NCBI RefSeq assembly: GCF_001562055.1
Contig: NZ_LLWE01000041.1
Span: forward strand, 84,994 to 148,993
From: Polycladidibacter stylochi
Lineage (GTDB): Bacteria; Pseudomonadota; Alphaproteobacteria; Rhizobiales; Stappiaceae
DNA: 64,000 nucleotides
Reading direction: 5' to 3'
Below, one piece after another: positions 1 to 16,243 of this stretch (position 1 is its first letter; each line of letters opens with the position of its first letter). The position numbers were made by a program, and so were the translations under genes. Below the pieces are notes generated by a model. It searched no databases and was not told the DNA's origin. It saw only the letters and a program-made list of their open reading frames with translations.

Positions 1-249
1 TCAGTTCAGCCTTGGAGCCGTTTCAATCCACGCCCCTGTATGAGGGGCGACGTGGAAAATAACGGCCCGGGCCGCTACACCATGGTTTCAATCCACGCCC
101 CTGTATGAGGGGCGACGACCAAAAACGCTTATGCTTTAGGCAACGAGGTGGTTTCAATCCACGCCCCTGTATGAGGGGCGACATATAGCTTGTGATTACG
201 TGATTAATATTGTCGTCGTTTCAATCCACGCCCCTGTATGAGGGGCGAC
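1..249 (-). CRISPR. Type I-C CRISPR array (leader-proximal end)
   Basis: Four identical 32-bp repeats lie at 20-51, 85-116, 151-182 and 218-249. On the plus strand each begins GTTTCAATCCACGCCCC and ends GAGGGGCGAC. The minus-strand form starts GTCGCCCC and ends GGATTGAAAC, which is the typical I-C repeat with a 7-bp hairpin and an 11-nt 5' handle. Spacers are 52-84 (33 nt), 117-150 (34 nt) and 183-217 (35 nt). A partial spacer occupies 1-19, so the array continues beyond the left edge. Transcription is inferred to run on the minus strand, in the same direction as the cas genes, with the repeat at 218-249 next to the leader. There is no variation among the four repeats. Confidence 0.98.
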
Positions 250-453: not shown

Positions 454-744
454 TCACATTATCAGCGTACCATCAAAATCTATCGTTGCTTTCGCGCCGC
501 AGTGCTCAACCCGCCGCTGCCAGTTTGTTCCTAAATAGTAGAACCGCAAGCTGTCCTTATCTTCGTTATAAATCGAAAGAAGCCGCGCTTTTAGCTCAGT
601 CCATTGAGCCGGGTTAACATCGCATTCGAAAACAGAATACTGCACACGTTGGCCATAATCCAGACAGGCCTTTGCCAAGCGCCGCAACCGCCTTGCACCA
701 CCAGCACTATCGGTTTTAACATCATAAGTAATCAAAACCAGCAT
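454..744 (-). CDS. cas2: CRISPR-associated endonuclease Cas2
   Basis: The protein has 96 residues and begins [11 protein letters not shown], the standard Cas2 N-terminus with the conserved Asp after the first beta strand. An RVQYSVFEC strand follows. Cas2 is the structural dimer between two Cas1 dimers in the spacer-integration complex. The longer reading to 783 adds 13 residues unlike any Cas2. ATG at 744 has a GGAGAT ribosome site just upstream and leaves cas2 one base from the end of cas1. It is the last gene of the cas operon, directly before the leader. Confidence 0.97.
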
Positions 745-745
745 G

Positions 746-1759
746 TTATCTCCAAACAAAGGGCGGATAACCTTCCAACTCATCTCGCAGGAAACGTGCC
801 ATTAACTGCGCCTGAATTAATGGGAATAAGCCAAACGCCACTTTCTCGCCAATAAATGGATGTTTTATTTCAGCACGCTTACGCTCTTGCCAAGCCTCAA
901 GGACGGTTTTCCGGCTCTCCTCTTTTAAATAGACAGCACCGCTGCTTTCGCGCGAAAAATCTTTAGGACTCAGCTGACGCCTGTTGATAAGCGATAAACA
1001 CACCCGATCGGCCAGTGGTGCACGAAACTCCTCCATTAAATCAAGTGCCAGCGAGGGCCTTCCCGGTCGGTCTGCATGGAGAAAACCCATTTGTGGATCC
1101 AGCCCCACAGTTTCCAATGCCGAGCGACAATCTGCTGTGAGCAATACATAGAGAAACGAAAGCAGCGCGTTCACTTCATCGCGCGGTGGGCGGCGCGATC
1201 TACCTGCAAAACCAAAACTCTCTTGACCTATCAGTTTCCCGAATACAGAAAAGTAAATACGGGCGGCATCTCCCTCATGCCCGCGTAGTTCCTCCACGTT
1301 GCAGGTTTCTAGTGCACCATTGCAAATACGCGTTAAGTTCTGCTCCGCTGTGTTAACGGCCCCGTCATCATCTTTATAATCACGCAGGTAGCGCCGTAAC
1401 ACGCTACGCTGATTAGCTATTTTGGCTGACACTATAGCCCCTGCAACCTCATGCGGGGCTTGTAGGCTGCGTAGGTGCTGTGCCCGTCGCAGCAGTATAT
1501 TCCCGCTTAGCGGGCCCTCTACTCTTGCCAGAAATTTGCCATAGGTATTTAGATAGCAAATCGAAACTCCACTTTCGGCACATGCATACATAAGCTGCGG
1601 TGAAAGCCCTACATTTCCAAAACAAACAACCGCGCTTAATAAATGCAACGGGGCACGGCCTTTAACGGTTCCGTCTAGCTGAACAACAATATTGGCACCT
1701 TCTTTACGTGCCCAAGCGCCATCACTGGTAATATATAATGTATTAAGAAACTTCTTCAT
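746..1759 (-). CDS. cas1: CRISPR-associated endonuclease Cas1 (type I-C)
   Basis: A 337-residue integrase that inserts new spacers at the leader end of the array together with Cas2. The N-terminal beta domain starts [15 protein letters not shown]. The C-terminal helical domain carries the acidic and histidine active-site region: the NALLSFLY helix, GFLH near residue 226, and LDLMEEFR near 238-245. The ATG overlaps the cas4 stop by four bases, so the two are translationally coupled. The length is normal for subtype I-C. Confidence 0.97.
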
Positions 1760-2394
1760 TCGGGCACATCTTCAGCTTGTATTTGAGCTTTTAGCCACGC
1801 TTTGATGTTGCGCTTTTTGCTCAAAACTCTGGGAAGGCATTGTTGCAGAAGCGAACAATTATCACAGCGCTGCTTTTCATAGTGGGGTGGCGGTACAACG
1901 CCATGCTTGCGGCAATTACGAATGTCTTCAATTGTCGCAAGGGTTAAATTGCGTAGCTCCACATCCAGCATAACAGTCATGCGCCGACGGGTTTTGCCAT
2001 AATACAACGCCCCTTCTGGCAAGTTACACCCAAACTGTTCCTCAAGGCACAAGGCTTGCGCGCACAATTGCACTTCGTCTGCCCGGTGGGCTTTCGGCTT
2101 ACCGCGCTTATACTCAACGGGAAAGGGCAGCCCACCGTGTAATTCCACCATATCGGCCACACCGTAAAGCCCATAGCGCGCGGAAGTCAGCTCAACCGAA
2201 CGCAATAAGCGTAGTCCCGACCGATTTTCCGAGCTTCTTTGGTCGACGTTCTCATGCAGCAGCCTGCCCTCGGCAGTAAAACGGTTTTCTTCCCAAATCT
2301 GATCGAGATGAATTAAACCGTATTGACGCGGGCAGAACTGCCAATGCTGCAGCGCAGAAATTGCTATGGCATCAGAACGGCTCGACAATTTCAA
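1756..2394 (-). CDS. cas4: Cas4 RecB-like nuclease
   Basis: The protein has 212 residues. It carries the four cysteines of a Cas4 iron-sulfur cluster (C21, C177, C180, C186) and the RecB nuclease motifs GVADMVE (D81) and PVEYKRGK (E94, K96). Cas4 trims prespacers and selects those with a correct PAM before Cas1-Cas2 integration. The start overlaps the end of cas7 by 23 bases and the end overlaps cas1 by 4, consistent with one operon. All catalytic and cluster residues are present. Confidence 0.96.
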   Translation of the reverse strand: MKLSSRSDAIAISALQHWQFCPRQYGLIHLDQIWEENRFTAEGRLLHENVDQRSSENRSGLRLLRSVELTSARYGLYGVADMVELHGGLPFPVEYKRGKPKAHRADEVQLCAQALCLEEQFGCNLPEGALYYGKTRRRMTVMLDVELRNLTLATIEDIRNCRKHGVVPPPHYEKQRCDNCSLLQQCLPRVLSKKRNIKAWLKAQIQAEDVPE

Positions 2395-3274
2395 TACCTT
2401 GCGGCAGGTTCAACGCATCCAAATTGATTTTGTAATCACTGAAGCGCCGCGCAGCCGGTAAGTTATGGCTGCGTTGATCCCCAAGCGGCACCTCCTCACC
2501 ATTCAACACTCTGGCTACACTAACACGGTCAAACAGTTTATGGGCCTGTGCATTTCCCAGTGCACTTTCGTGTTTAAATGCAATCAACCGGCGGGAAGCC
2601 ATTTCTCCACGCGCGGCTGAGCGGTCAAAATCAAACATATCACGCAGGGCCGCCCACAAGGTGTCTAGATCACCTTCTGAGAAGCCGGTTTTTTCCGCCA
2701 ATTTCGGGTTGATGAAGCCATGAACACGATAAAGCCCGTAGGGCACAATGTGTTTGCGGCCCATGGTCCGTTCTTTATCCCTGTCCTTTTCGTTGGTCAC
2801 AGAGGAGCGGGTGATAGAGATTTCAAGCGGTAAGACGGCCTCTTCAGAACGGGCAAACGACAGCTGAACTGGCCCGCGCACCTGACCGCAATTAACCTCG
2901 GTTGTCATAACCGCGCCAAAGCTGCGAATGTCGAAGTAGTTATCGCACATCCACTTGGTCAGTGCTTTTGCTTCCTCATCCTTTTTAGGAAGTTTCTTTT
3001 TTTCTGACTTCAATTCTAAAGCAGTATAAGCTTTGGCGTTATTTTCATTGAGCACTGCGCGCTCACTCATATAAATCTCGTGACGCTGCTCGCCTTCATG
3101 GGCCATTGCAACATAATTGCGGATTTTGCGTTTCAGGCAAACATCCGACACCAATCCCTGATTGGTTTCCGGGTCCATGCGCGGCAGGTTACCGGCATCC
3201 GGGTCGCCATTCGGATTGCCATTGCTCACATCAAAAAACATAACAAAATCGTAGCGGTTCTGTAAATTAGACAT
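2372..3274 (-). CDS. cas7: Cas7 backbone protein, Csd2 family (type I-C)
   Basis: A 300-residue protein starting with a typical Csd2 N-terminus, RYDFVMFFDVSNGNPNGDPD near residues 7-26. It also has the ITRSSVTNEKD and HIVPYGLYRVHGFINP segments characteristic of Cas7c. Several copies polymerise along the crRNA to form the Cascade backbone. The gene overlaps the end of cas8c by 8 bases. No lesions are seen. Confidence 0.96.
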   Translation of the reverse strand: MSNLQNRYDFVMFFDVSNGNPNGDPDAGNLPRMDPETNQGLVSDVCLKRKIRNYVAMAHEGEQRHEIYMSERAVLNENNAKAYTALELKSEKKKLPKKDEEAKALTKWMCDNYFDIRSFGAVMTTEVNCGQVRGPVQLSFARSEEAVLPLEISITRSSVTNEKDRDKERTMGRKHIVPYGLYRVHGFINPKLAEKTGFSEGDLDTLWAALRDMFDFDRSAARGEMASRRLIAFKHESALGNAQAHKLFDRVSVARVLNGEEVPLGDQRSHNLPAARRFSDYKINLDALNLPQGIEIVEPF

Positions 3275-5039
3275 CGATCATCTCTTTTTCTTCAATGGAT
3301 TGTTTCGCATCGTTTTTTGTCCAACGCTGATGGTAGTAGCCAGCACAAAAACGACCCTGATCTTCAAGGGTTAAAGAACGCGGTAGTTCCGCATCCAGCC
3401 CCAGCCAGACCTGCCCAATTTCTTTTTCCAACCAGTGGCCAAGCCCCTTGTTTTCTGCTTTCTTTAAATTGGCTAAATGATGATTGCTATTGCGTAACAG
3501 CAAGGGGAAAATACGCGCCGGTGTTGCTGAGGCCGCTGAAAAATAGCGATCTTTAATCGTGGCGTTTAGCCCAGGCAATGCCGCAGATTGAGAGCGCTCC
3601 AGCAATGCAAACAAGCGTCCTAACCTATACGCCGAGTTGGTTGTTTCACTATCCAAACTCACCGAAATCTCCTCCTGTGTTCTTCGATTTATAACAGCTT
3701 TCAAAATGGCAACTCTGCGCCCGCTAATATCTTTTTCGGCGCGGATACGGGTCATGACAGCACTTAACAGTGTGCTCGGTAGCGGTTGGCCAGCCAGCAC
3801 AGCACGCATCACCTCCCCCCCAAGTAGTGGCGGGATGTTTTCTGCTTTACGTTGCAAAGCGATTTCGTATAATAAAGCCCAAGCAGCGGGAGGCCCATTA
3901 AAACCTGAAGGTTCCAAGCTAAGGTCTTGCCAAAAGCGGGCGATATTTTGCGCAAAAGTTTGCAAGCCCGATTGCTGCCAAAAACGAATAGATAGCCGAG
4001 CCGCATTGGGGGCTAAACCCAGCACAAAAATTTTGGTATTTTCATCAAATTCAGGCGCATCAGCATAACGCCCCTGCGAAATATTCATCAAACTGGCTTG
4101 TAATTTGTTGGTTTCATCAGCCTCGGTTGGCGGGTTTAAAGCCTGCCCTATTAGCAGTTCGGCAAAACTAGCGGCTTTTTGGCTGGCAGCTTCTGCCCAA
4201 AAGACCACCGTTGTATCACCTACACGCAAACTTCGCCGCGAGCCTTTCGCCAGTAATATGTTAAGCGCCGTTCCATAAGCAAGCGAGGCTGCTTCTGATA
4301 CCGGTGCATTCTCCCCTTGCTTTTTTCCATAGGATTCATAGGGTTCACCATTAAATGACACCAAAGCAGCGCCTGAGCTTTGTGCACCCATGACACCTTT
4401 TATCGGCGGGTGAAGACGGGCAATTGGAGCCTCTTCGCCGCTGACCAGACACAAGCCATTGGCACCATCCTCGTGGCTGTTTTGTAAATACTCCAAGACA
4501 GCTGGGCGCTCATGTAAAAAACGAAAGCCATTATCCGGCCCTTTGTCATCAACCAACCGAAACACAATATTCTGGTCGAGCGCATCATTAGGAAAACCAA
4601 GCTCTGAAAATTGCGTAGGCTGCCAATTCCCATAGAACTTGAAGAGTGCTTGTAACCCCTCATCTTCAGTGGAGGATAACAACTCTCGATGCGCCGTCAC
4701 AAAAGCATTATGTTCTTCGAGCGTCCGCTTCCCTTGGCCGGGGTGGATTTTTCCCTCTGCATCTTCAATAGCAGTCATACCTAGTACGTATGAGGTTTTA
4801 TCCCAAAACAGGTTGGGTTTAATGCCAGCTGTTCTTTTGACAGCTTGAGGCACTGCCATAACCCGCGCACTGGTTTTATTGCCTACGATTTCTTGTAGGC
4901 TACTGAGCCCAAGTGGTTTTCCTTCCCTGTCAATAACCAGCTCGAAGCTGATTTTTTCAAAAGAAAAGCCCGGCCTTGGTGCCTCGCCAACTTCCAGCAT
5001 GCGTACATGTAGTTGCGCCAGACTTTGCAAGACCGTCAT
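3267..5039 (-). CDS. cas8c: Cas8c large subunit, Csd1 family (type I-C)
   Basis: A 590-residue Csd1 protein. In I-C Cascade it recognises the PAM, and an internal start in the gene usually also supplies the small Cas11c subunit. Family features include the Csd1-like N-terminus, [11 protein letters not shown] (about residues 78-88), [16 protein letters not shown], and a C-terminal region ending [12 protein letters not shown]. The start overlaps the cas5 stop in an ATGA. It is intact and of family length. Confidence 0.96.
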
Positions 5040-5695
5040 CGTACCATCCCCGCAGCATGGGCGCCGGCAACATCTATTACGCCGTCCACCATTTGGGCAC
5101 GGAAAAACATTGGTGTTTTATCCCGTGCAAAGTCGATGTCATAGAGCATCCACCCCAAATCGCGAGAAAGCCCTGATGTTTGTTCCGGCAACTCTTCCAA
5201 CAGCTCGAAATCGGCCACAAATTCACGAAGACCTAAGCAAGGGCGATGAAAGCATTGCCCTTTTGAGGCACGACGGCGAAAGGTATCCAGATGCTTTGCT
5301 ACGGTTTCATCTTTGCCAGCTTTTTCTGTCATCTCGAAATGCGCTTCAATCACATAAGCGACGTCTCTCAGGGCCATTGTTGCCCGCTGTTGCCGTTTTT
5401 CGTCCACGCACATATGCAAGCCCTTTAAGCTTCCTGCATTCATGGCTGTCTTGACATTCCTTGCAGAAATTTTCGAGCCAACTTCATTGCGGCGGATATT
5501 CTCAAAACGGATAGGTTCAAGGACGTGAATCTTGTCAATCACCCACTTAATTGCCGGCTTCCAATGAATCGCCTCCAAAACCCCCCGGGCGGCCGATGGT
5601 GTCAATACATCGTAGGAGACCCGCTCCACCTTCATTTCCGGTCGGGTAAAACAGGCATAGTCCCCCCATACCTTCAGCTTAACGCCGTAACTCAC
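5036..5695 (-). CDS. cas5: Cas5c (Cas5d) crRNA-processing endonuclease
   Basis: About 219 residues. In I-C systems, which lack Cas6, this protein cleaves the repeat at the base of its hairpin and caps the 5' handle. The chosen GTG start at 5695 gives (M)[21 protein letters not shown], the canonical Cas5d N-terminus. A GGAGGAG ribosome site sits immediately upstream; the longer TTG start at 5707 would swallow it. Its presence implies that the degenerate repeat upstream could also be processed. The gene begins the cas5-8c-7-4-1-2 block. Confidence 0.94.
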
Positions 5696-5715
5696 TGGCT
5701 CCTCCAACTATTTTG

Positions 5716-5745
5716 AATGCCCCCCACAAATAAATGGGAGGCATT
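5716..5745 (-). other. Hairpin between the degenerate repeat and cas5
   Basis: An imperfect inverted repeat with arms AATGCCCCCC (5716-5725) and GGGAGGCATT (5736-5745) around a 10-nt loop; one pair is G-U. It follows the spacer-like sequence in the minus-strand direction and could be a vestigial second repeat, a 3' stabilising end for a small guide RNA, or a weak attenuator before cas5. There is no U-tract, so a classical terminator is unlikely. Confidence 0.5.
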
Positions 5746-5802
5746 GCTTGATAACAATCTAGGAAGGTTACATGTTTCAATCCACGCCTACAAATAGGCG
5801 AC
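5746..5802 (-). ncRNA. CreA/CreR-like guide RNA: degenerate CRISPR repeat plus spacer-like sequence
   Basis: A lone 29-nt repeat-like element at 5774-5802 keeps the last 14 nt of the array repeat in transcript sense (GGCGTGGATTGAAAC end) and a shortened 6-bp CGCCTA/TAGGCG stem. The following 28 nt (5773 down to 5746) act as a spacer. Its first 16 nt, ATGTAACCTTCCTAGA, match the plus strand at 5981-5996 at 14 positions, and that target is preceded by TTC, the I-C PAM. One mismatch is at position 6, a base normally flipped out in type I complexes. The expected product is a crRNA-like RNA that sends Cascade to the promoter at 5947-5974. The sequence match is directly visible; the RNA itself is inferred. 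Confidence 0.75.
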
Positions 5803-5808
5803 AAGTAA

Positions 5809-5916
5809 TTACAAAATAAATCTCAGCATCATAATTAAGCGCAGAACACCTAGAGCAAGGCGCAAAATAGCACTTATTCTGCGATATAGCTTAAAATGCT
5901 CATTAGGATATTGCAT
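5809..5916 (-). CDS. 35-codon ORF, candidate CreT-type toxin
   Basis: The ORF reads MQYPNEHFKLYRRISAIL, then continues through a very hydrophobic, arginine-dotted stretch (RLALGV, LRLIMM, LRFIL) to TAA at 5809-5811. A perfect AAGGAG lies 6 nt before the ATG (5923-5928), and a promoter lies 24 nt further upstream. Two AGA codons and an ATA are present (AGA-ATA are adjacent), which are often rare codons. It is followed at once by the degenerate repeat. Toxicity could come from the membrane-active peptide or from tRNA sequestration. It could instead be a harmless leader ORF. No homologue is recognised. Confidence 0.55.
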   Translation of the reverse strand: MQYPNEHFKLYRRISAILRLALGVLRLIMMLRFIL

Positions 5917-5946
5917 ATTGCTCTCCTTAAATATGAGTACATTGAC

Positions 5947-5974
5947 TATATACAACCTTATGTTACTTTTTCAA
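5947..5974 (-). promoter_or_regulatory. Promoter of the small ORF (and possibly of cas5-cas2)
   Basis: Minus-strand -35 TTGAAA (5969-5974) and -10 TATATA (5947-5952) with 16-bp spacing, a near-consensus sigma70 promoter. It starts right after the cas3 stop. The predicted start lies near 5940, about 24 nt before the small ORF. Confidence 0.65.
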
Positions 5975-5977
5975 TAC

Positions 5978-5996
5978 TTCATGTAGCCTTCCTATA
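5978..5996 (+). promoter_or_regulatory. Predicted Cascade self-target site with PAM
   Basis: TTC at 5978-5980 followed by a protospacer beginning at 5981 that matches spacer-like positions 1-5, 7-14 and 16 of the guide at 5746-5773. The site lies in the last codons of cas3, and the PAM side is 4 bp from the -35 box. Bound Cascade would obstruct RNA polymerase. The match ends after position 16, too short for efficient cleavage by family precedent, but suitable for repression. Confidence 0.75.
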
Positions 5997-8183
5997 AAAA
6001 ATATCCATTTCTCCCTGCTTCTCCTCGGAGAAACCAGCTTGCTCACTGTAAAGCGTTGAATTTTCCAGAATGACAAATTGCGCCCCAAAATCATTGGGTC
6101 GGCAGATTTTCGCATCTCCGCTGGCAATTAAACCACTGAGAACCCATGGAGACACTTGGATTGAGTAGTTCTGCATTTTGCGGGCGATCACCCCAGCGTG
6201 CTGGCAGTGCTTGAGCAGTTCGCGTGCCTCTTCGGTAAGACCATAAGTCCCCCCGCCTATGATGAGTGGCTTACTGGTATCTTCTATGAGCCGAACAGTT
6301 GCTGCCATCTTGGCGAAGTTGAAATTCAGCTCCGAACCGGCATCGGCAATTTCAATCAGTGTTCCGCCTTGATCCATAGCGGTTGACCGGCTCCAGTAAA
6401 TTTCCCTGAAATAAGCTTCTACGGCCTCCAATGAAAGCGGGTCGTCAAACTGTGTCAATATAGTCAGCGCTTTTTCGGCATTGAGTTTTATTTCCGGAGG
6501 CGCCCCGTAAGTTTCCTCAGCTTCAAAAATATGTAACTGGCCAGAAGCCAATTTACCTTCCCGGTTACAACGTCCCGCCGCTTGTGCTATTGAATCAAGA
6601 CCGGCTACAGCCCGCCAAACCTCGGGAAAATCCAAATCAACGCCTGCTTCAACCAATGCAGTTGCAATTAAGAGCGTTGGCCGTTTATTCAGCTGTTGTT
6701 TCACCTGATCCAAGACATGACGACGATGCGTGGCGCTCATGTTGGTAGAGAGATGAAAAACCCCCTCGTCCTGTAAAGCGTTGTATAGATCGCGTGCCTG
6801 TTTTTTATTGTTTACAATAATGAGTGCGGTTTTACCGCTTAACTGCGCCACTAACTGACGGTTGGTTTGTAAGCCGACAAATTTTGCTTGAACGCGTTTC
6901 AAGCGGTTAAATAATTCAGGAGGATTAGGGGCTATCTCACGCGTATTTTCTTGCGACAGCGCCTCGGCAGCAGAAAAACCGCATTCCTTGTAGATTGCCG
7001 GCTGTGTTGCGGTGCACAACACCAGTGAGCAGCCATAGCCTCGCACCAACTCTTTTAGTGCTGCCAAACACGGGCGTAATAAATGAACAGGCAGGTTTTG
7101 CGCCTCATCCAGTATAATCACCGAATCTGCAATATTATGAAGCTTACGGCACTTTGAGGGTCGGTTTGCATAGAGGCTTTCAAACAACTGTACAGCTGTT
7201 GTTACAATGATCGGTGAGTCCCAGTTCTGAGCCGCATTTTTAATTTTCTCCGCTTTGCTTTCATCTTCTATCGTATCACTATCAAAAGCGCTGTGGTGCT
7301 CAAGTATCGCATCTGTGTCCCCAAGAAAGCTGCGAAAAACATCCGAAGTTTGCTCGATAATGGATGTATAGGGGGCAACATAAATAACGCGTCTCTTTTT
7401 GTGTTGAACAGCATGCTCAATCGCAAACTGAAGCGAAGATAACGTTTTACCGCCACCGGTAGGCACTGTTAGAGAAAACAGGCCTGGCTGATCTTTGGCC
7501 CGTTTGAGAGCAGCTGCCAACACCTGAGCCCGCAATCCATTCACTACATCACCATCTTGAACGGGAGGAAATTCGGCTAGCTTTTGTTTTAGGTGCTGGT
7601 TGAGGTTCTCTAGTGTGCCCTTATAACCGCGCTCAACCTCGGGGCTGTAAAAAGCTTCCGTTTGAATAAAATCGGCATCCACGAGAGCTGAAAACAACAT
7701 ACGTATAAAAAACTGGATTTCAAATAAACTGTTTTGACTGTCAAGTTCTTCAAATAATTTAGGTAATCTCAAAGGAGCCAGCGTCAACCATTCAGGTTTT
7801 TTAAGTAACTCTGCCTGTTTGAGCCGCTCGTTGAGCGGGGTAACCGGTCTATCTGAACCCGTTAAAAGACCATTGGCCAAACCCGCATGGTGACCGGCAA
7901 TACAGTAGGCCAGCATTTTTCCAAAGACCCCAAAGTTTTCAGCAGCATAACAAGCACCTTCACCACTGTGACCAACACTGTTCTTTTCCCCTTTGAGTTT
8001 TGCCTGAAAAGCCGGTTTTATTTTACCTAAATCGTGTAGCAAGCCTGCCACTTCACCTAGTGATGAGGCATCAAAAGCTGCAGCATTTTCGGCAGATTTT
8101 CTCGCAACAGCTGATAAATGGTCAGATAGTAACTCCCATTCATCAGCAGCAGTGTTTTCGAGTGAATGCGCATAAATCACCAC
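5979..8183 (-). CDS. cas3: Cas3 HD nuclease-helicase (type I-C)
   Basis: A 734-residue effector. The N-terminal HD nuclease domain has HDLGK at residues 50-54. The SF2 helicase has Walker A PTGGGKT near 241-247 and a DEAQ box at 359-362. Helicase motif VI is in the IAQAAGRCNREG segment. Cas3 is recruited by DNA-bound Cascade and degrades the target. Two GTG codons (8183, 8180) can serve as start, with GAGG upstream. It is separated from cas5 by the small-ORF and degenerate-repeat unit instead of abutting it. Confidence 0.97.
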   Translation of the reverse strand: MVIYAHSLENTAADEWELLSDHLSAVARKSAENAAAFDASSLGEVAGLLHDLGKIKPAFQAKLKGEKNSVGHSGEGACYAAENFGVFGKMLAYCIAGHHAGLANGLLTGSDRPVTPLNERLKQAELLKKPEWLTLAPLRLPKLFEELDSQNSLFEIQFFIRMLFSALVDADFIQTEAFYSPEVERGYKGTLENLNQHLKQKLAEFPPVQDGDVVNGLRAQVLAAALKRAKDQPGLFSLTVPTGGGKTLSSLQFAIEHAVQHKKRRVIYVAPYTSIIEQTSDVFRSFLGDTDAILEHHSAFDSDTIEDESKAEKIKNAAQNWDSPIIVTTAVQLFESLYANRPSKCRKLHNIADSVIILDEAQNLPVHLLRPCLAALKELVRGYGCSLVLCTATQPAIYKECGFSAAEALSQENTREIAPNPPELFNRLKRVQAKFVGLQTNRQLVAQLSGKTALIIVNNKKQARDLYNALQDEGVFHLSTNMSATHRRHVLDQVKQQLNKRPTLLIATALVEAGVDLDFPEVWRAVAGLDSIAQAAGRCNREGKLASGQLHIFEAEETYGAPPEIKLNAEKALTILTQFDDPLSLEAVEAYFREIYWSRSTAMDQGGTLIEIADAGSELNFNFAKMAATVRLIEDTSKPLIIGGGTYGLTEEARELLKHCQHAGVIARKMQNYSIQVSPWVLSGLIASGDAKICRPNDFGAQFVILENSTLYSEQAGFSEEKQGEMDIFYRKAT

Positions 8184-8758: not shown

Positions 8759-10918
8759 ATGTATTTATTAGGAAGAATAATCTGGAACGGTTGGGTACGT
8801 TTCTTGATATTTTGGGTAATTGTAGCAGCCGTATTGTATGGGTTTGATAATACATTTAAAGATATAAATTACTCGCAATTACTTGAAAGAATGTCTTTGG
8901 CAATTAAGCTTGCCGCCAATCAACTAAATGCTTTAGAGGCAAAAGTAGCCCTTTTTCAACTAAGTGAAACAAAATTTATTCTGTCTCTAGCATATGGTAT
9001 AGCAGTTGTTGCGATATCATTTGCGATTTCCTTTTTTATTCTTCATGTTCTAATCATTAAATTGTCTGTTTATTTGGTTAAAAGAAAAATCAATAAATTT
9101 GATAGACCCGAAGATTTTAAAAGAGCCTATGAGAACCAAATCGATCCCGTATTACGTTCTCATAGACTAATCGGTAATGTCTGGCGTGAGTTCGATGAAA
9201 CACTTGTTCACCCGAGAGAAGGTGAACGGCAAGTTATAAGAAATACTGTGCGTCCCCATACATTTCTCAATATGGGGCTGGTGCGAGATAAACTTGCAGG
9301 CATCAAAATGATGCCATCAATCCCAGGTTATTTTGTGGCTGTAGGCTTACTATTAACTTTTGCAGGTATTGTATTAGCGCTTTACAAGGCCGGAGCAGCT
9401 TCGAGCGCAAATGATGTTACAAAAATGCAAGAGGCGATGACGGAGCTACTGCAAATTGCTTCATTTAAATTTGCCACATCAATTGCTGGGTTAGGCTGCT
9501 CACTACTGCTTTCTATTGTTTTCAAAATGTATATGATTTGGATTGAAAGCGACTTCTCCTCTCTTTGCGAGACGATAGAAAAGAAGTTACTTTATGTTGC
9601 CCCACAAGCTCTTGCTGTACAAATGAATAGCATTATGGAGGAGCAACGGGATCAGTTAAAAGACATCGGCTCCGAGCAGTTCTTTAATCAAATGGGGCAG
9701 TCGCTTGCTCCACAGATCCATTCTGCATTTACGCATGCTATGGCACCTGTCAATCAAAGTATTTCAAACGCACTCGAAAAGGTGACTGAATCTAGCCAAA
9801 CTGGCATTACTGAAATGCTTCAGAAATTTTCTCATGATGTACAGAGTAGTGCCGGGACTGAACTACGAGAATTGGCTGTTTCTCTTACAGCTATGCAGCA
9901 AACTCTGAGCGACATGCAAGCAGGTATGAAAACTAGTGGAGAAGACTTTGCCCAATGCTTAAGCAAAGCGGCTGAAAATCTAAATCAGCTCGTTGGTGAA
10001 GCTGCAAAATCAATGAATGATGGTGCAGCAAGTAGCCGTGATAGCCTTCACGAAATTGTATCTGCTTTACAAGCCACATTTGAGAAAGCAAATCTGGCAA
10101 TTGAACAAGACCTTACCAAAGCTGCAACCGGCGCATCTGACAAGATAGAGCGCGCCATGGGACGGGTCCTGGAGAACCTTGAGGGGCAAATAACACAATT
10201 AAGCAGCGGTATGAGTCAGTTGGAAGGGAACTTGGCAGGTTCAGTACAACAAACTCAACAATCAATGGAATTAGCTCAGAAAAACGCAATTGAAACAGTT
10301 AATTCTGTTGCAGTAAATACTGCAAATGCCCTTAAAAATGGGCTAACTGAGACCTTGCAAACACTGCGTAGTGAAATTGACAGGTTCGAAAAAGCACTCG
10401 GTAGTTCAAGCGTTGCACTAGGTTCGCAAGCGACGGCTATTGGTGATGCCACATCTCAGACAAAGCAGGTATCTGATGTTATTGGTCAAACAGCATCAAC
10501 TCTGCGTCAAACAATTACCCCCTTTACTCAGTCCGTAAGTAAAATCGAGAATGCTACGCTTGACTTTAAACAATCCCTGAGCAAGGCAGTTGTCGCTCTT
10601 GGAGAAAGTCAGAGTGGTTCAAACGAGCTCGCAGCAACTTTGAAGGATGAAGGGCAAAAACTGACAAGGATGTGGCAAGATTATGAAGTTCGCTTCCAAC
10701 GTATTGATACGGAACTTGGGAATGCCGTTGAAAGTTTAGCCTCAGCAACAAGCCAGCAAGGTGCAACACTTACCAAATACTCTAGTGAGGTCGATAAGTC
10801 GCTTGCGCAAGCTGTGAGGCATCTTAACAGTAATGTTACTGATATTGCAGATTCTGTTGAAGAATTTGCTGATGAGGTTGGAAAGTTACACTCCGTTTTA
10901 CGACCAGCTGCGGAGTAA
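8759..10918 (+). CDS. zorA: ZorA, MotA-like stator/motor protein of type I Zorya
   Basis: A 719-residue inner-membrane protein. Four membrane segments are visible near residues 13-30, 73-100, 188-210 and 236-262. A long, largely helical cytoplasmic tail (about 290-719) rich in Q, S, A and E heptads follows. The MotA/ExbB-like core pairs with ZorB to make a proton-driven complex that senses phage infection, and the tail is thought to relay the signal. It is the first of four closely packed genes. Identification rests on the membrane layout, the tail and the ZorB, ZorC and ZorD neighbours. Confidence 0.93.
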   Translation: MYLLGRIIWNGWVRFLIFWVIVAAVLYGFDNTFKDINYSQLLERMSLAIKLAANQLNALEAKVALFQLSETKFILSLAYGIAVVAISFAISFFILHVLIIKLSVYLVKRKINKFDRPEDFKRAYENQIDPVLRSHRLIGNVWREFDETLVHPREGERQVIRNTVRPHTFLNMGLVRDKLAGIKMMPSIPGYFVAVGLLLTFAGIVLALYKAGAASSANDVTKMQEAMTELLQIASFKFATSIAGLGCSLLLSIVFKMYMIWIESDFSSLCETIEKKLLYVAPQALAVQMNSIMEEQRDQLKDIGSEQFFNQMGQSLAPQIHSAFTHAMAPVNQSISNALEKVTESSQTGITEMLQKFSHDVQSSAGTELRELAVSLTAMQQTLSDMQAGMKTSGEDFAQCLSKAAENLNQLVGEAAKSMNDGAASSRDSLHEIVSALQATFEKANLAIEQDLTKAATGASDKIERAMGRVLENLEGQITQLSSGMSQLEGNLAGSVQQTQQSMELAQKNAIETVNSVAVNTANALKNGLTETLQTLRSEIDRFEKALGSSSVALGSQATAIGDATSQTKQVSDVIGQTASTLRQTITPFTQSVSKIENATLDFKQSLSKAVVALGESQSGSNELAATLKDEGQKLTRMWQDYEVRFQRIDTELGNAVESLASATSQQGATLTKYSSEVDKSLAQAVRHLNSNVTDIADSVEEFADEVGKLHSVLRPAAE

Positions 10919-10926
10919 ATTGAGCG

Positions 10927-11844
10927 ATGCTAGCCCTTGATGAAACACAGTATGATCATGAAGAGGAAAGTGAAAACTACTTTGTCTCGATGACTGATAT
11001 GATGGTTGGTATCCTGTTCATCTTTATCATTATGCTCATGGTATTCGCGCTCCAGTTTCAAGAACAAACGGATACTTCAGAGACTAAGCTTTCTGAAATA
11101 CTTGAGCGTATTGAGGATGTAACTAAAAAGCTAAGCAATTTACAAGATGAAATTGATGTTCGTTTAACTGCGCTTAATGCCTCACGACAAAAGCGAACTC
11201 AATTGCTTGTCGACATAGAACAAGAATTGAAGGCTGTTGGCCTGGAAGTTCAAATAGATCCCGAAAATGGCGTGTTACGCCTAACAGAGAACGCGATCCA
11301 TTTTGCAAGCAATCAATCAATTCTGGACCGGGTTGCAAAAAAGAATGTCGAAAAAGTCTCGCGTGTTTTGGCAAAAGTTTTGCCAAGTTATACAAGCTGT
11401 ATCAATACGGGAGGTGTAGAAAGCTGTAAAGAGTTGCCGCCGGGTGGTGCAATTGACACTGTTTTTATTGAAGGCCATACAGATAGCCAGGGGTCGGACA
11501 CTGAAGCTGGTGACAAGCGCAATTGGCAACTTTCTACTGAAAGAGCTGTTTCAACCTATAGAGCATTACTTACTGCTGCGCCGACTTTACGTAGTTTGAT
11601 GAATCCTGACCGCAAGCAAATATTATCTGTCTCAGGCTATGCTTCAACCCGACCCATACCTGGCACAGAGAAAGCCAGCCTTGATAGGGCTTCACGAGCA
11701 CAAACGCTTCTTCGCAATCGCCGCATTGATATTCGCTTTGTTATGCAAGTCGATCCTACAGATCGATTGAACAAAGTTCTTAAACTCACCCGAGATATGC
11801 AAGGCGAAATTGAAGTACTCAAGAAGACACTTGGCGCACAATGA
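10927..11844 (+). CDS. zorB: ZorB, MotB-like protein with OmpA peptidoglycan-binding domain
   Basis: 305 residues. A short cytoplasmic N-terminus leads into one membrane helix (about 20-42) with a conserved Asp at residue 24 (SMTDMMVG), the predicted proton-carrying residue. A periplasmic coiled coil (about 50-100) and a C-terminal OmpA/MotB domain with IEGHTDSQG and RIDIRF follow. It anchors the ZorAB motor to peptidoglycan. It starts 8 bases after zorA and overlaps zorC by 4. Confidence 0.94.
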   Translation: MLALDETQYDHEEESENYFVSMTDMMVGILFIFIIMLMVFALQFQEQTDTSETKLSEILERIEDVTKKLSNLQDEIDVRLTALNASRQKRTQLLVDIEQELKAVGLEVQIDPENGVLRLTENAIHFASNQSILDRVAKKNVEKVSRVLAKVLPSYTSCINTGGVESCKELPPGGAIDTVFIEGHTDSQGSDTEAGDKRNWQLSTERAVSTYRALLTAAPTLRSLMNPDRKQILSVSGYASTRPIPGTEKASLDRASRAQTLLRNRRIDIRFVMQVDPTDRLNKVLKLTRDMQGEIEVLKKTLGAQ

Positions 11845-13277
11845 CGAATACATCTCTCAAACAAATTTGTAGCGACACGGTCAGCAGCTTCACACATGCT
11901 ACTGTACAATTAAATTTGCCAGAAATAACCTTTGTGGGACAGGAACTAAAACAACTTCCATCAGAGACATGGGCACAGCAGGATAAGACAGATCTTCCGA
12001 CCTTGAATAAAATATCATATGATATTATCGAAGCGCTCAGTAACGACAGGGATTTAACAAAAAAGCAGCTGCGGAAAGCAGCTTGGTGCCTATGGGAAAC
12101 AAAGCCAGCACTTTCTTCTGATCCCGTCATTTTGCAAAAAATACTAGCGATACTAACTCAAGGTAAAAAACGTCTATTTAAAATACTGGCAACTGTATAT
12201 CTTTCACAGTTTCGAAAGGATAGACCCGGCCTAACAGCGGTTTCAAAAGCGTTACAAATCGGAGCAATTCAAATAGGACAACCTTGGCAACAGTTACAAG
12301 AGAACTACGCGCTTTATGATAGGGACAATGGTCCTAAGCGTATCGCGCAAGTTGCCTTACAGCAAAATTATTCAGTACCTCAACTTATGCGGGACTTGGG
12401 ACTTTCAGATCAAAGTGCCCTTTCCGGTTTTTCTCAGGCGGTGACCAGCTCAATACTCAAATCGCTGTCTGCTGACACAAGCAATGAACACTTGAGACGC
12501 CTTGAACTTGTACGCCAATATGCACTAGATGAAAGTCAGAGCCAATTATTCGCGGGGCAAGACGTAGAGATTGCGACAGCTCTTATTGAGCCATTCGTGA
12601 AATCACAGCAGAAACCGGATGATGAGGTAAAAGATAGCTTCCTAGATACATTGATAGGTTTGTTCGAAGATCCTCGCCTCAATCCCGGGCGTTGGGTTAA
12701 GATGGGGCCTCTTAAAGAAGAAATAATATCATGGTTAACGAAGCAATCTTTACGCCAATTTTTAGACATTGTTGATCGAATTACCAACGAACCCTCTGAG
12801 AAAGCTATGTGGCAATATAGACGTGCTTTTTGGGAGGCTGTCTACCAGAAAGACTTAATTAAGGGGGCTTGGGTCATTTTTGCAGATGATGGCGCAACTG
12901 CAACTCGTAACCACTATGGAAAAGAAGTTCAATTCGGGCGCTTTTTTAAAGGTGGCTCAAAAGCAGCAAGAAGCAGTCACGCCGTACTCCTATTAAGAAT
13001 TGGAAATGGCGTTGTTGCTGACTGGAGCCATAACGGAAAAGTGAATATTTGGAGCAATTATGATGCTCGAAAAGCACCGAAACTCTACAAAAATTGGTAT
13101 AATACAGATGAAGTCCGTTATTATGTCGGCCAGGGCAACATTAATACGCCAGAACATTTTGTGCAAATTCACAGCTCACCTCAAACTTACAGTTGGCAGA
13201 AAGCCGTTGCAGAGCGCATTAAAGCAATGACCAATACGCGCATACAAGAACGGGAATACAAGGTTAGGAGTTACTGA
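11841..13277 (+). CDS. zorC: ZorC, EH-signature domain protein
   Basis: 478 residues, soluble, with the C-terminal EH_Signature region: the WQYRRAFWEAVYQKDLIKGAWVIF segment, around residues 315-337, and the WSHNGKVNIW segment. In type I Zorya, ZorC is a cytoplasmic effector acting with ZorD on invading DNA. Start and stop overlap zorB (4 bases) and zorD (1 base). The length is slightly shorter than commonly seen but no truncation is evident. Confidence 0.9.
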   Translation: MTNTSLKQICSDTVSSFTHATVQLNLPEITFVGQELKQLPSETWAQQDKTDLPTLNKISYDIIEALSNDRDLTKKQLRKAAWCLWETKPALSSDPVILQKILAILTQGKKRLFKILATVYLSQFRKDRPGLTAVSKALQIGAIQIGQPWQQLQENYALYDRDNGPKRIAQVALQQNYSVPQLMRDLGLSDQSALSGFSQAVTSSILKSLSADTSNEHLRRLELVRQYALDESQSQLFAGQDVEIATALIEPFVKSQQKPDDEVKDSFLDTLIGLFEDPRLNPGRWVKMGPLKEEIISWLTKQSLRQFLDIVDRITNEPSEKAMWQYRRAFWEAVYQKDLIKGAWVIFADDGATATRNHYGKEVQFGRFFKGGSKAARSSHAVLLLRIGNGVVADWSHNGKVNIWSNYDARKAPKLYKNWYNTDEVRYYVGQGNINTPEHFVQIHSSPQTYSWQKAVAERIKAMTNTRIQEREYKVRSY

Positions 13278-16243
13278 TGGGCTTCTTAGGTATCCCCCAC
13301 CCTCAGGGAGCGATTGTTCAACTATGTAAGCCGAAAATTCTAGGTAGAAAAAAAACCATTAACTTGGCTGACTGGGATCGATCACTTTCGAAAGCGCTGA
13401 AGCCTACCTATCGCTTGCTAATGAACTTGCTCGCTGAAGGGGCCGGTGAAAAATACGAGGAAGGCGTACTAATTCCCACCAAAACACTGCTTTCACTGCC
13501 GGATAATCAATTGAGTCGATTAGGCATACCTCCTTTAGCTGGTCTTTCGTTGTCTCTATCCATGAACGGCAGGGTTGATAGCACTGATAGTAACTTGATA
13601 CTTGTGTGGCAAGACAGCAATTCACGGACAATTACCCCAGATTTTAAAGGCCCATTTTTACAAAGCAATGGAGAATGGCGCAGGCTTTCCAAATTCATGT
13701 ATGAGCTGCAACATGCAGCACGTGAATTTAATGCGAGTGCAGGACAGAACTTCGAAGATCGGCTTCCTTACTGGTCTCAGGTGCAACAATACTTAAATGA
13801 ACTTGATCACGGGGTTGATGCAGATAAATATTTAAATTCCTTACGAATTTATCAAGCTGGTGCACTTACGTTGGATGTTAGGGAGACACAAAACGGACCT
13901 GACTTTATTCCCGTGATGCTGCCCAAAGGAGCGCCGGCTGAACTACTGGAAACTGATGATGGACCGAACACCTCTGAATTAGACAGTGCCAATTATCATG
14001 AGAATGAAGAAGCTACCAATCTGTTGCCACCACTACTGCAAGACAAGTTTGATAGCCAGTTTTCGCAGCTTCGCGGTCAAACACCGCCTGCTATGGTACT
14101 GGAGAAGGGAGCCTACTTATTAATCGAAAAGCCTTTACAAACCGCAATAGACATCGTCAAAAGCGCCCGTACACTGCCGCTAGCGGGGCGACGCGAGTTC
14201 TTACGCAATCCTAGAACTGTGTTATCGCAGGCATTAGGTTCTGAGGGCGATTCTCTAGCTCAGGAAATATTCGTTGAAACAGAACAATACTCAGAAAGAA
14301 TTCAGGGATTAGGACTTTGGGAAAAGCCTAATTTGCCTTGGCTGTCTCGCAAGTCTACTCAATGGTTACCCGAACGGTTTTACTTCACCATTGGTACAAA
14401 GACAAAAGAGGCAACTCCGGAAACTATAGAAAATCTACGTATCAGCTTTGAGCAAGCTAAAGAGAATGACCTTGATGTCGTTCAGTTCCAAGGAGAAAGC
14501 TTCAAGTGTGCTGACGTAGAGAAGTGCCTAGAGAACCTCTCGCCTCAAACCATAGTAGAACTCGGTGATATAGAGCAAAAAGAACAGTCAGTGCAACTTG
14601 AACCTGACGAAAAGAAAGAGGCTGCTGTCCTACTCATTCAGGAAAATTTGGAATCGAATGATTATACAGCGAATTTTTCTAAGCGCAGCCACATATTCCC
14701 GATTGAGTTTCCAAACGATTATATCAACGGTACAATACCAAAGAGCCATCAAATGGTTGGTTTCGACTGGGTATGCCGTGCTTGGAAAGAGGGCTGGCCG
14801 GGCGTTTTACTTGCTGATGATATGGGGGTTGGTAAAACCTTTCAAGCTTTGGCCTTCTTGGCATGGATACGCCAAAATAAACTCGGAGCCAACAACTCGT
14901 TCCGTGCCTTGAAAGGGCCAATACTTATTGTTGCGCCTACAGCACTACTTGCCAATTGGCGAAAAGAGGCTGAAATACATTTGCTTCCCGATACACTAGG
15001 CCAATGCTGTGAGGTCTACGGTAAAGGGCTGAAGAGTTTAAAAAGAAAACAATGTGATATTACAAAGGGCGAGGATTTGCTCCATATTGAGCAATTACGC
15101 GAAGCAGAGTGGGTACTAACGACATATGATACACTGGCTTTATACCACCAATCCTTTGCCCGAATTGCTTTTTCTATAGGGATATTTGATGAGATCCAGA
15201 AAATAAAATCTCCAGATTCAATCAACTCTCATGCGGCAAAAACAGTCAATATTGATTTCGTCGTTGGGATGACTGGAACACCAATTGAAAACCGTATTGA
15301 GGACCTATGGTGTATTATGGATAGGATTGCCCCCGGTTATTTGGAGGATTTAAAAAGCTTTTCAAAAACCTATGGCGATGAAAATGCTGAGTCTCTCAAT
15401 GCCTTGAAGTCCAAACTTGATGAACCACAAGGCAACGCTCCACCAATTATGTTAAGGCGTATGAAGGAGCAAATCTCCACTGATTTACCGAATAAAGATA
15501 TTAAGTCCTACAAAATTAACATGAGTACAGAGCAAGCCCGTGCTTATGATGGCATCATTCAAAAGGCAAAATCCAGCGACGCTAGTCCAAGATTTATTTT
15601 ACAAACCCTACATGAAATGCGTAGTATTTCCTTACATCCCAACGGTCATTCTCAATCTGATCTCTACGATAAAAAGCAACGAGAAGAGTGGATAAAGGCT
15701 TCAGCCCGCCTTGCGAAAACCATTCAAATTCTTGAGGAAATTGAGAGTAAAGGCGAAAAAGCACTCGTTTTTCTAGAAGATAGAATCATTCAGCAGAGCC
15801 TCTCGACAGCATTGGCCGAGCATTTTTGTTTTGCGGCGCCTCCGGTTATCATTAATGGTGAGATGACAGGTTTGAAGCGGCAAGAACACGTTGATGCTTT
15901 CCAAAATTTGCCTAAAGGTTTTGCCGTTATGATTTTATCACCTAAAGCTGCGGGCATTGGTTTAACAATAACGGCGGCTAATCATGTTATTCATCTAAGC
16001 CGCTGGTGGAATCCAGCCGTTGAAGACCAGTGCAACGACCGTACCTATCGGATTGGACAGAAGAAAGACGTCACCATACATGTGCCAATGGCAGTCCACC
16101 CCACTTATGGCCAGGCTTCCTTTGATATCCGCCTCGATGAACTTTTGAAGAAAAAGAGGAATCTTTCGCAAAATATGCTTGCCCCGCCGGTTTGCGAGGG
16201 AGATTCGGAAGCGCTATATAGTCAGGTCATAAAAAACAATTAA
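13277..16243 (+). CDS. zorD: ZorD, SNF2/SWI2-family helicase of type I Zorya
   Basis: 988 residues. An N-terminal ZorD-specific region (about 1-480) is followed by a SNF2 ATPase: motif I DDMGVGKT near 512-519, DEIQ near 637, GMTGTPIENR near 660. The second RecA lobe has AAGIGLTITAANHVIHLSRW and the arginine motif DRTYRIGQ near 922-929. It completes the zorABCD set, and the absence of a ZorE HNH gene makes this type I. Codon use resembles the other zor genes and is more AT-rich than the cas genes, suggesting a separate acquisition. Confidence 0.95.
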   Translation: MGFLGIPHPQGAIVQLCKPKILGRKKTINLADWDRSLSKALKPTYRLLMNLLAEGAGEKYEEGVLIPTKTLLSLPDNQLSRLGIPPLAGLSLSLSMNGRVDSTDSNLILVWQDSNSRTITPDFKGPFLQSNGEWRRLSKFMYELQHAAREFNASAGQNFEDRLPYWSQVQQYLNELDHGVDADKYLNSLRIYQAGALTLDVRETQNGPDFIPVMLPKGAPAELLETDDGPNTSELDSANYHENEEATNLLPPLLQDKFDSQFSQLRGQTPPAMVLEKGAYLLIEKPLQTAIDIVKSARTLPLAGRREFLRNPRTVLSQALGSEGDSLAQEIFVETEQYSERIQGLGLWEKPNLPWLSRKSTQWLPERFYFTIGTKTKEATPETIENLRISFEQAKENDLDVVQFQGESFKCADVEKCLENLSPQTIVELGDIEQKEQSVQLEPDEKKEAAVLLIQENLESNDYTANFSKRSHIFPIEFPNDYINGTIPKSHQMVGFDWVCRAWKEGWPGVLLADDMGVGKTFQALAFLAWIRQNKLGANNSFRALKGPILIVAPTALLANWRKEAEIHLLPDTLGQCCEVYGKGLKSLKRKQCDITKGEDLLHIEQLREAEWVLTTYDTLALYHQSFARIAFSIGIFDEIQKIKSPDSINSHAAKTVNIDFVVGMTGTPIENRIEDLWCIMDRIAPGYLEDLKSFSKTYGDENAESLNALKSKLDEPQGNAPPIMLRRMKEQISTDLPNKDIKSYKINMSTEQARAYDGIIQKAKSSDASPRFILQTLHEMRSISLHPNGHSQSDLYDKKQREEWIKASARLAKTIQILEEIESKGEKALVFLEDRIIQQSLSTALAEHFCFAAPPVIINGEMTGLKRQEHVDAFQNLPKGFAVMILSPKAAGIGLTITAANHVIHLSRWWNPAVEDQCNDRTYRIGQKKDVTIHVPMAVHPTYGQASFDIRLDELLKKKRNLSQNMLAPPVCEGDSEALYSQVIKNN

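What the first reader, a model, noticed from the sequence alone, without database searches (positions are those of the whole stretch)
5708..5999. Candidate CreTA/CreR unit inside the type I-C cas operon
Seen: between cas3 and cas5 lies a consensus-like promoter (TTGAAA-16-TATATA at 5947-5974), an AAGGAG-led 35-codon ORF (5809-5916), and one degenerate CRISPR repeat (5774-5802) with a spacer-like sequence. The first 16 spacer bases match 14 of 16 at 5981-5996 immediately after TTC, the I-C PAM; a mismatch falls at position 6, the base normally flipped out. The target begins 4 bp beyond the -35 box. Known: CreA RNAs carry a degenerate repeat and partly match the creT promoter so that Cascade represses a toxin; CreR RNAs similarly repress cas promoters. 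Inference: loss of Cascade would release the toxic ORF, guarding the cas genes; or the guide tunes cas5-cas2 transcription. In this I-C arrangement I know of no described example.
Basis: partly seen in the sequence, partly recalled or inferred. Interest (0 to 1): 0.95.

Follow-up and report, generated by a model that had tools for sequence, protein, structure and literature searches.

The report
CRISPR-guided lock on a toxic peptide
Inside a type I-C CRISPR operon of a Pseudovibrio-like bacterium lies a lone, degenerate CRISPR repeat whose guide matches a site beside the predicted promoter of a 35-residue peptide gene; the CRISPR complex is predicted to hold that gene off, so that losing the complex would likely release a toxic peptide and punish the loss of immunity.

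Summary
The 283-nt gap between cas3 and cas5c of a complete type I-C operon holds a predicted promoter, a Shine-Dalgarno-led 35-codon ORF, one degenerate repeat with an intact handle, and a guide matching 14 of 16 bases beside TTC, 3 nt from the -35 box. The unit recurs: of 53 non-redundant I-C gaps over 100 nt, a search that assumed no repeat found TTC-adjacent internal pairs in 18, and in all 18 a pair follows the repeat handle; 2 of 52 control cas3 segments had any pair. Mismatches pile up at guide positions 6 and 12 (10 of 16 loci each), and guide and target covary in related loci. Eleven loci carry 26-35-residue peptides in the toxin slot; one homologous pair shows purifying selection. 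Two loci with decayed targets have broken ORFs. Best reading: a type I-C CreTA module with a translated peptide toxin, probably also tuning cas5-cas2. Closest known: the Citrobacter rodentium type I-E CreTA (translated 96-bp ORF). Ten searches of an open-access library showed no type I-C description. RNA processing, repression and toxicity are inferred, not shown.

The parts
5978..5996 (+). Target of the guide: TTC PAM (5978-5980) and protospacer (5981-5996); overlaps the 3' end of cas3
   Evidence: 14 of 16 matches; sole genomic match besides the guide
5945..5974 (-). Predicted promoter (TTGAAA -35, TATAGT or TATATA -10)
   Evidence: PAM ends 3 nt from the -35
5809..5916 (-). Shine-Dalgarno-led 35-codon ORF, putative toxic peptide (creT)
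   Evidence: no Pfam or NCBIfam family; modelled as one helix, residues 6-34; similar short ORFs in 10 other loci
5774..5802 (-). Degenerate repeat with 6-bp stem and intact 11-nt handle (creA, 5' part)
5746..5773 (-). Guide (spacer-like part of creA), 28 nt, first 16 match the target
5716..5745 (-). Strong hairpin ending creA, in place of a second repeat; no T run
5036..5695 (-). cas5c, predicted processing enzyme and Cascade subunit
   Evidence: TIGR01876, 177 bits
5979..8183 (-). cas3
   Evidence: TIGR01587 and TIGR01596 above cut-off
454..5039 (-). cas8c, cas7c, cas4, cas1c, cas2
1..249 (-). End of the CRISPR array that continues outside the window

Best explanation
The cas3-cas5 gap holds a degenerate CRISPR repeat whose guide matches a TTC-flanked site 3 nt upstream of a predicted promoter, and type I-C Cascade loaded with this guide is predicted to repress that promoter and so keep a likely toxic 35-residue peptide from being made. 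The RNA would be cut by Cas5c at the base of the retained stem, leaving the usual 5' handle; it pairs over only about 16 bases, likely enough for binding but too little for Cas3 cutting. If Cascade were lost or blocked, the promoter would open and the peptide, a predicted amphipathic helix, would arrest the cell, probably at the membrane, so that cells losing Cascade are selected against. As no terminator was seen before cas5, the same repression probably also tunes cas5-cas2. Shown: the parts, the guide-target match, its recurrence, the mismatch pattern at positions 6 and 12, guide-target covariation, and purifying selection on one homologous peptide pair. Inferred: RNA processing, repression, toxicity, addiction.
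For: Unbiased pair search: 18 of 53 gaps have a TTC-adjacent pair, in each of the 18 one pair follows a repeat handle; 2 of 52 control cas3 segments have any pair. Handle in 30 of 66 gaps over 60 nt, 0 of 65 control segments. Mismatches over 16 loci: 10 at position 6, 10 at 12, 0 at 10, 11, 13. Compensatory changes: L128/L129 at 1, 4, 8; L103/L104 at 3, 4, 5, 8; L044/L045 at five positions. Stem beside the handle beats shuffles (p 0.03 or less) in 21 of 26 loci. PAM ends 1-3 nt from the best -35 in 6 of 20 loci, 7-9 nt in 5 more. Eleven short ORFs, mean hydrophobic fraction 0.58 against 0.44 and 0.46 in the other frames; L128/L129 dN 0.40, dS 2.24. Intact ORF with decayed target: 0 of 14 loci (Fisher p 0.033, post hoc). 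A translated 96-bp ORF in the cas3-casA gap of Citrobacter rodentium, with a PAM-flanked target over the UP element, is toxic without Cascade (PMC12055562, section 13 read).
Against: No expression, repression or toxicity data. The window's own ORF is not unusually hydrophobic (p 0.25; its +1 frame is more so). In 9 of 20 loci the best-scoring promoter is not just downstream of the target. L057 keeps a perfect match although its ORF looks frameshifted. Units without a peptide ORF exist (L032, L033, L038, L101, L103, L104), which fit autorepression or RNA toxins better. No separate creA promoter was found in 10 loci tested, whereas creA in Acinetobacter has its own start site (PMC10097628). Related CreT elements act as RNA, not peptide (PMC8501985, PMC10097628). 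35 of 53 gaps show no strict pair.
Confidence: 0.76

Rival explanations
1. CreR-like autorepression only: the guide lets Cascade damp the promoter of cas5-cas2, and the ORF is an incidental or regulatory leader, not a toxin.
For: No terminator between ORF and cas5; ORF-less units with a strict pair in L103 and L104 and a near-match in L101.
Against: Eleven loci keep Shine-Dalgarno-led short ORFs in the slot and L128/L129 show purifying selection; broken ORFs accompany decayed targets in L045 and L055.
Confidence: 0.14
2. CreTA with an RNA toxin: the creT transcript harms as RNA or by trapping rare tRNAs, and the peptide is irrelevant.
For: Known CreT of types I-B and I-F act as RNA despite conserved mini-ORFs (PMC8501985, PMC10097628); the window ORF has AGA, ATA and CTA codons.
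Against: Purifying selection on L128/L129 peptides; no such codons in L013 and L127; the type I-E toxin must be translated (PMC12055562).
Confidence: 0.08
3. Chance or relic: a worn-out mini-array whose guide happens to match nearby DNA.
For: Single degenerate repeat; the nearest relative with a readable gap lacks it.
Against: Recurrence, mismatch pattern at 6 and 12, and covariation.
Confidence: 0.02

Closest known systems
CreTA of Citrobacter rodentium, type I-E (PMC12055562; section 13 read in full)
   Same: Unit between cas3 and the first Cascade gene; translated short ORF (96 bp); PAM-flanked partial target over the UP element, upstream of the promoter; one repeat-like and one spacer-like segment.
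   Different: Subtype I-E, PAM ATG; its creA lies upstream of the ORF on the opposite strand, while here it lies downstream on the same strand, next to cas5c. Authors report no homology of the toxin to other annotated sequences; I did not compare it with the peptides here.
CreTA of Acinetobacter, type I-F (PMC10097628; section 6 and passages)
   Same: Gap after cas3; degenerate repeats; 17 of 20 guide bases match, with mismatches at 6, 11 and 18; Shine-Dalgarno-led mini-ORF.
   Different: Two repeats, divergent orientation, 33-bp ORF, toxin shown to be RNA.
CreTA of haloarchaea, type I-B (PMC8501985; sections 3, 14, 19 read)
   Same: Degenerate-repeat guide with partial match to the toxin promoter; a one-repeat form ended by a terminator exists.
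   Different: tRNA-sequestering RNA toxin with a four- to six-codon ORF; processing by Cas6.
CreR, types I-B, I-E, V-A (seen only through reviews: PMC13131331 passages, PMC12737573 section 9)
   Same: Guide with limited match to a cas promoter.
   Different: Generally without a toxin gene; type I-C not named there.
CrePA (seen only through PMC12737573 section 10)
   Same: Cascade-repressed protein toxin.
   Different: KilA-N domain protein, not a short peptide.
Type I toxin-antitoxin peptides (PMC12737573 passage)
   Same: Short hydrophobic or amphipathic peptide.
   Different: Held by antisense RNA, not by Cascade at the promoter; no homology tested.

Membership tests
CreTA | Located within a CRISPR-Cas locus | tested here: met
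   Between cas3 and cas5c
CreTA | Degenerate repeat keeping the elements needed for crRNA processing | tested here: met
   Perfect handle and 6-bp stem in the window; by sequence only
CreTA | Guide partly matching a PAM-flanked site at the toxin promoter | tested here: met
   covariation in relatives
CreTA | Cascade-dependent repression of the toxin | not testable with these tools
   Needs reporter or RNA data
CreTA | Toxic element | not testable with these tools
   Only indirect: selection on one peptide pair, joint decay in L045 and L055
CreTA | RNA toxin (original definition) | tested here: inconclusive
   Peptide-level selection in L128/L129 argues for translation; the type I-E CreT must be translated
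CreR | Guide matches a promoter of the cas operon | tested here: inconclusive
   No terminator before cas5, but the transcript's extent is unknown
CreR | Generally not coupled with a toxin gene | tested here: inconclusive
   A short ORF sits in the slot here; ORF-less units occur elsewhere
CrePA | KilA-N domain protein toxin | tested here: not met
   35-residue peptide, no Pfam family
Type I toxin-antitoxin | Antitoxin RNA antisense to the toxin mRNA | not tested
   The guide's match is to DNA upstream of the ORF

The most novel reading that the evidence does not exclude
Type I-C operons carry a replaceable Cascade-guarded toxin slot between cas3 and cas5c. Promoter, toxin, guide and Cascade genes lie on one transcript from one Cascade-repressed promoter, so a single circuit both sets Cascade levels and kills cells in which Cascade fails. 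The slot is filled by membrane-type peptides, HicA or structured RNA in different lineages, while guide and target coevolve and the flipped-out positions 6 and 12 drift.
Probability: 0.45. Interest if true: 0.88.

Novelty: new variant of a known kind. Interest (0 to 1): 0.78.

Why it matters
Type I-C is a common CRISPR subtype (abstract of PMC7684278, listing), and a recurring guarded toxin slot in it would help explain why such costly operons persist and what happens when phages block Cascade. The loci supply natural guide-target pairs with covariation, which suggest that about 16 bases with free positions 6 and 12 suffice for lasting recognition. They make the addiction idea testable in a third kind of bacterial Cascade, one without Cas6.

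Tried and rejected
Chance match: rejected. tRNA sequestration as a shared mechanism: rejected, since L013 and L127 lack the rare codons listed; not excluded for the window's own ORF. Known RNA family: none at gathering score in L032, L033, L038, L031, L016, L127; the window itself was not scanned. Peptide families: none in NCBIfam for 4 peptides, none in Pfam for the window peptide. Separate creA promoter: none convincing in 10 loci. HicB: 2 opposite-strand proteins beside HicA gave no HicB hit in Pfam. Fold search of the peptide not run: a single helix would match without meaning. Class sampling around G450 returned mostly the same places as and was not used in the counts. The Science 2021 CreTA paper, the CreR paper and the CrePA paper were not seen; I know them from reviews.

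Full report
The window lies on contig C2 of a genome whose same-genus relatives with this operon are Pseudovibrio (G008 and G012, the latter Pseudovibrio flavus). On the minus strand it carries cas3, cas5c, cas8c, cas7c, cas4, cas1c and cas2, each above a curated NCBIfam cut-off, then an array with 16 repeat matches.

Between cas3 and cas5c, in transcription order, lie: the target (TTC 5978-5980 and 5981-5996, plus strand, overlapping the cas3 stop); a predicted promoter whose -35 starts 3 nt beyond the PAM; an ORF of 35 codons with AAGGAG; a degenerate repeat with a 6-bp stem and a perfect 11-nt handle; 28 nt of guide; a strong hairpin (repeat to hairpin z -2.98 against dinucleotide shuffles); and the cas5c Shine-Dalgarno. 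The guide matches the target at 14 of 16 positions, mismatching at 6 and 15. No other site in the genome matches within 2 mismatches except the guide itself.

To ask whether this is chance I collected type I-C loci by Cas5c similarity. The sample is biased: the best 80 of 436 candidates, plus relatives and 6 of 30 plasmid records. 130 loci had cas3 just upstream of cas5; 120 were non-redundant; gaps were 60 nt or less in 54, 61-100 in 13, above 100 in 53. In those 53 I searched for any 17-nt stretch matching a TTC-adjacent site (first five equal, at least 12 of 15 scored positions, positions 6 and 12 not scored) without using the repeat. 18 of 53 had a pair, and in each of the 18 one pair follows a repeat handle; some of these loci hold further pairs that do not. 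Of 52 equal-length cas3 segments 2 had any pair. In an earlier, overlapping set 122 of 1800 shuffled regions had a pair. Handles themselves occur in 30 of 66 gaps over 60 nt and in 0 of 65 control segments. L125 and L139 have the unit on the other strand. L044 (weaker after position 10), L101 (mismatch at 3) and L048 (TTT PAM) are near-misses; L025, L058 and L102 have a handle but no convincing target. The nearest relative with a readable gap, P. flavus, has neither pair nor handle.

Over 16 loci (L033 and L104 dropped as near-duplicates) mismatches were 10 at position 6, 10 at 12, 0 at 10, 11 and 13, 1 to 3 at 7, 8, 9, 14 and 15, 5 at 16 and 10 at 17. Positions 1-5 were forced to match and the others limited by the filter; 6 and 12 were free. 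This is the period at which bases are flipped out in Cascade (recalled). In homologous loci guide and target change together: L128/L129 at 1, 4, 8; L103/L104 at 3, 4, 5, 8; L044/L045 at five positions; in the first two pairs one-sided changes within the first 14 positions fall only at 6 or 12. L032/L033 differ only at 12 (within 16). L101/L104 differ by one target change at 3.

The repeat stem is kept while its sequence is not: the best stem beside the handle beats shuffles at p 0.03 or less in 21 of 26 loci (not in L025, L045, L058, L071, L102), and the stretch after the handle folds with z of -2 or lower in 15 of 26. The PAM ends 1-3 nt from the best-scoring -35 in 6 of 20 loci and 7-9 nt in 5 more; in 9 the best-scoring promoter lies elsewhere. 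No creA promoter stood out in 10 loci, so guide and toxin may share one transcript.

Toxin slot. Eleven loci (window, L013, L016, L031, L041, L044, L068, L071, L127, L128, L129) have a Shine-Dalgarno-led ORF of 26-35 codons, chosen by eye. Mean hydrophobic fraction is 0.58 against 0.44 and 0.46 in the other frames; 6 of 11 beat base shuffles at p 0.05 or less, and 6 of 11 have an amphipathic moment at p 0.05 or less. The window's own ORF is unusual only in moment (p 0.036), not in hydrophobicity (p 0.25). It models as one helix, residues 6-34, mean pLDDT 80.6, from a single sequence. L128 and L129 peptides are homologous, dN 0.40 and dS 2.24, over 31 codons with dS near saturation. By eye, in L045 the homologue of the L044 ORF has lost its start codon, and the guide mismatches the target at 3 and 10; in L055 no Shine-Dalgarno-led ORF of 18 codons or more is left and the target has decayed; L057 keeps a full match with an ORF that looks frameshifted. 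Among these 14 loci none has an intact ORF with a decayed target (Fisher p 0.033, post hoc).

Other slot contents: HicA-like ORFs in long gaps (PF07927 in L053, L058 and L066, 3 of 3 scanned; of these only L053 has a strict pair, L058 a handle alone, L066 neither), ORF-poor structured stretches (L032, L033, L038; no Rfam hit), or no ORF (L101, L103, L104). So the guide-promoter part is more general than the peptide, and for some loci plain autorepression is likelier.

Literature (open-access library, 10 searches). The listings showed no paper that couples CreTA or CreR with type I-C; one review names both, apart, and gives CreR for I-B, I-E and V-A (PMC13131331, passages). PMC10097628 states that creTA genes known before it all surround cas6 (section 6); type I-C has no cas6 (recalled). 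The nearest system is the C. rodentium type I-E toxin (PMC12055562, section 13). A type I-C repeat-spacer guide without a second repeat can repress genes (PMC10865793, passage). TTC as I-C PAM is in the abstract of PMC8406640 (listing) and a passage of PMC10865793. That shorter guides switch a type I-B system from cutting to repression is in the abstract of PMC10551041 (listing).

Verdict: the guide-target pairing is close to certain as a selected feature; that Cascade represses this promoter is very likely; that the ORF is a toxic peptide is likely; that it guards the operon follows if the rest is true.

Noticed in passing
window 8759-16243: A four-gene Zorya type I anti-phage system (ZorA1, ZorB1, ZorC1, ZorD1 models, best E-values from 8.9e-88 to 0) stands next to the CRISPR operon.
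   Followed up: partly
L053, L058, L066 (cas3-cas5 gaps of 820-864 nt); L048 and L052 look alike by eye: The slot holds a HicA-like ORF (PF07927) and an opposite-strand ORF with no Pfam hit; L053 has a strict guide-target pair upstream of it.
   Followed up: partly
L032, L033, L038 cas3-cas5 gaps: Guide and target are present, but the slot between them is GC-rich and hairpin-like without a convincing peptide ORF; possibly an RNA toxin.
   Followed up: partly
L126, L130, L142 cas3-cas5 gaps: Gaps hold related ORFs that by eye resemble a GIY-YIG nuclease; the L130 protein had no Pfam hit above cut-off.
   Followed up: partly
L071 and L074 (Candidatus Gastranaerophilales), gap of 305 nt: Same parts in another order: guide unit first, then its target, then a 28-codon hydrophobic ORF just before cas5.
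   Followed up: no
L112, L113, L125, L139 cas3-cas5 gaps: Repeat handles on the opposite strand; L125 and L139 have a handle-preceded TTC pair there.
   Followed up: no
L142 (Rhizobium sp. Q54 plasmid): Both cas3 and cas8c are annotated as two pieces each, and no guide unit is found in the gap.
   Followed up: no
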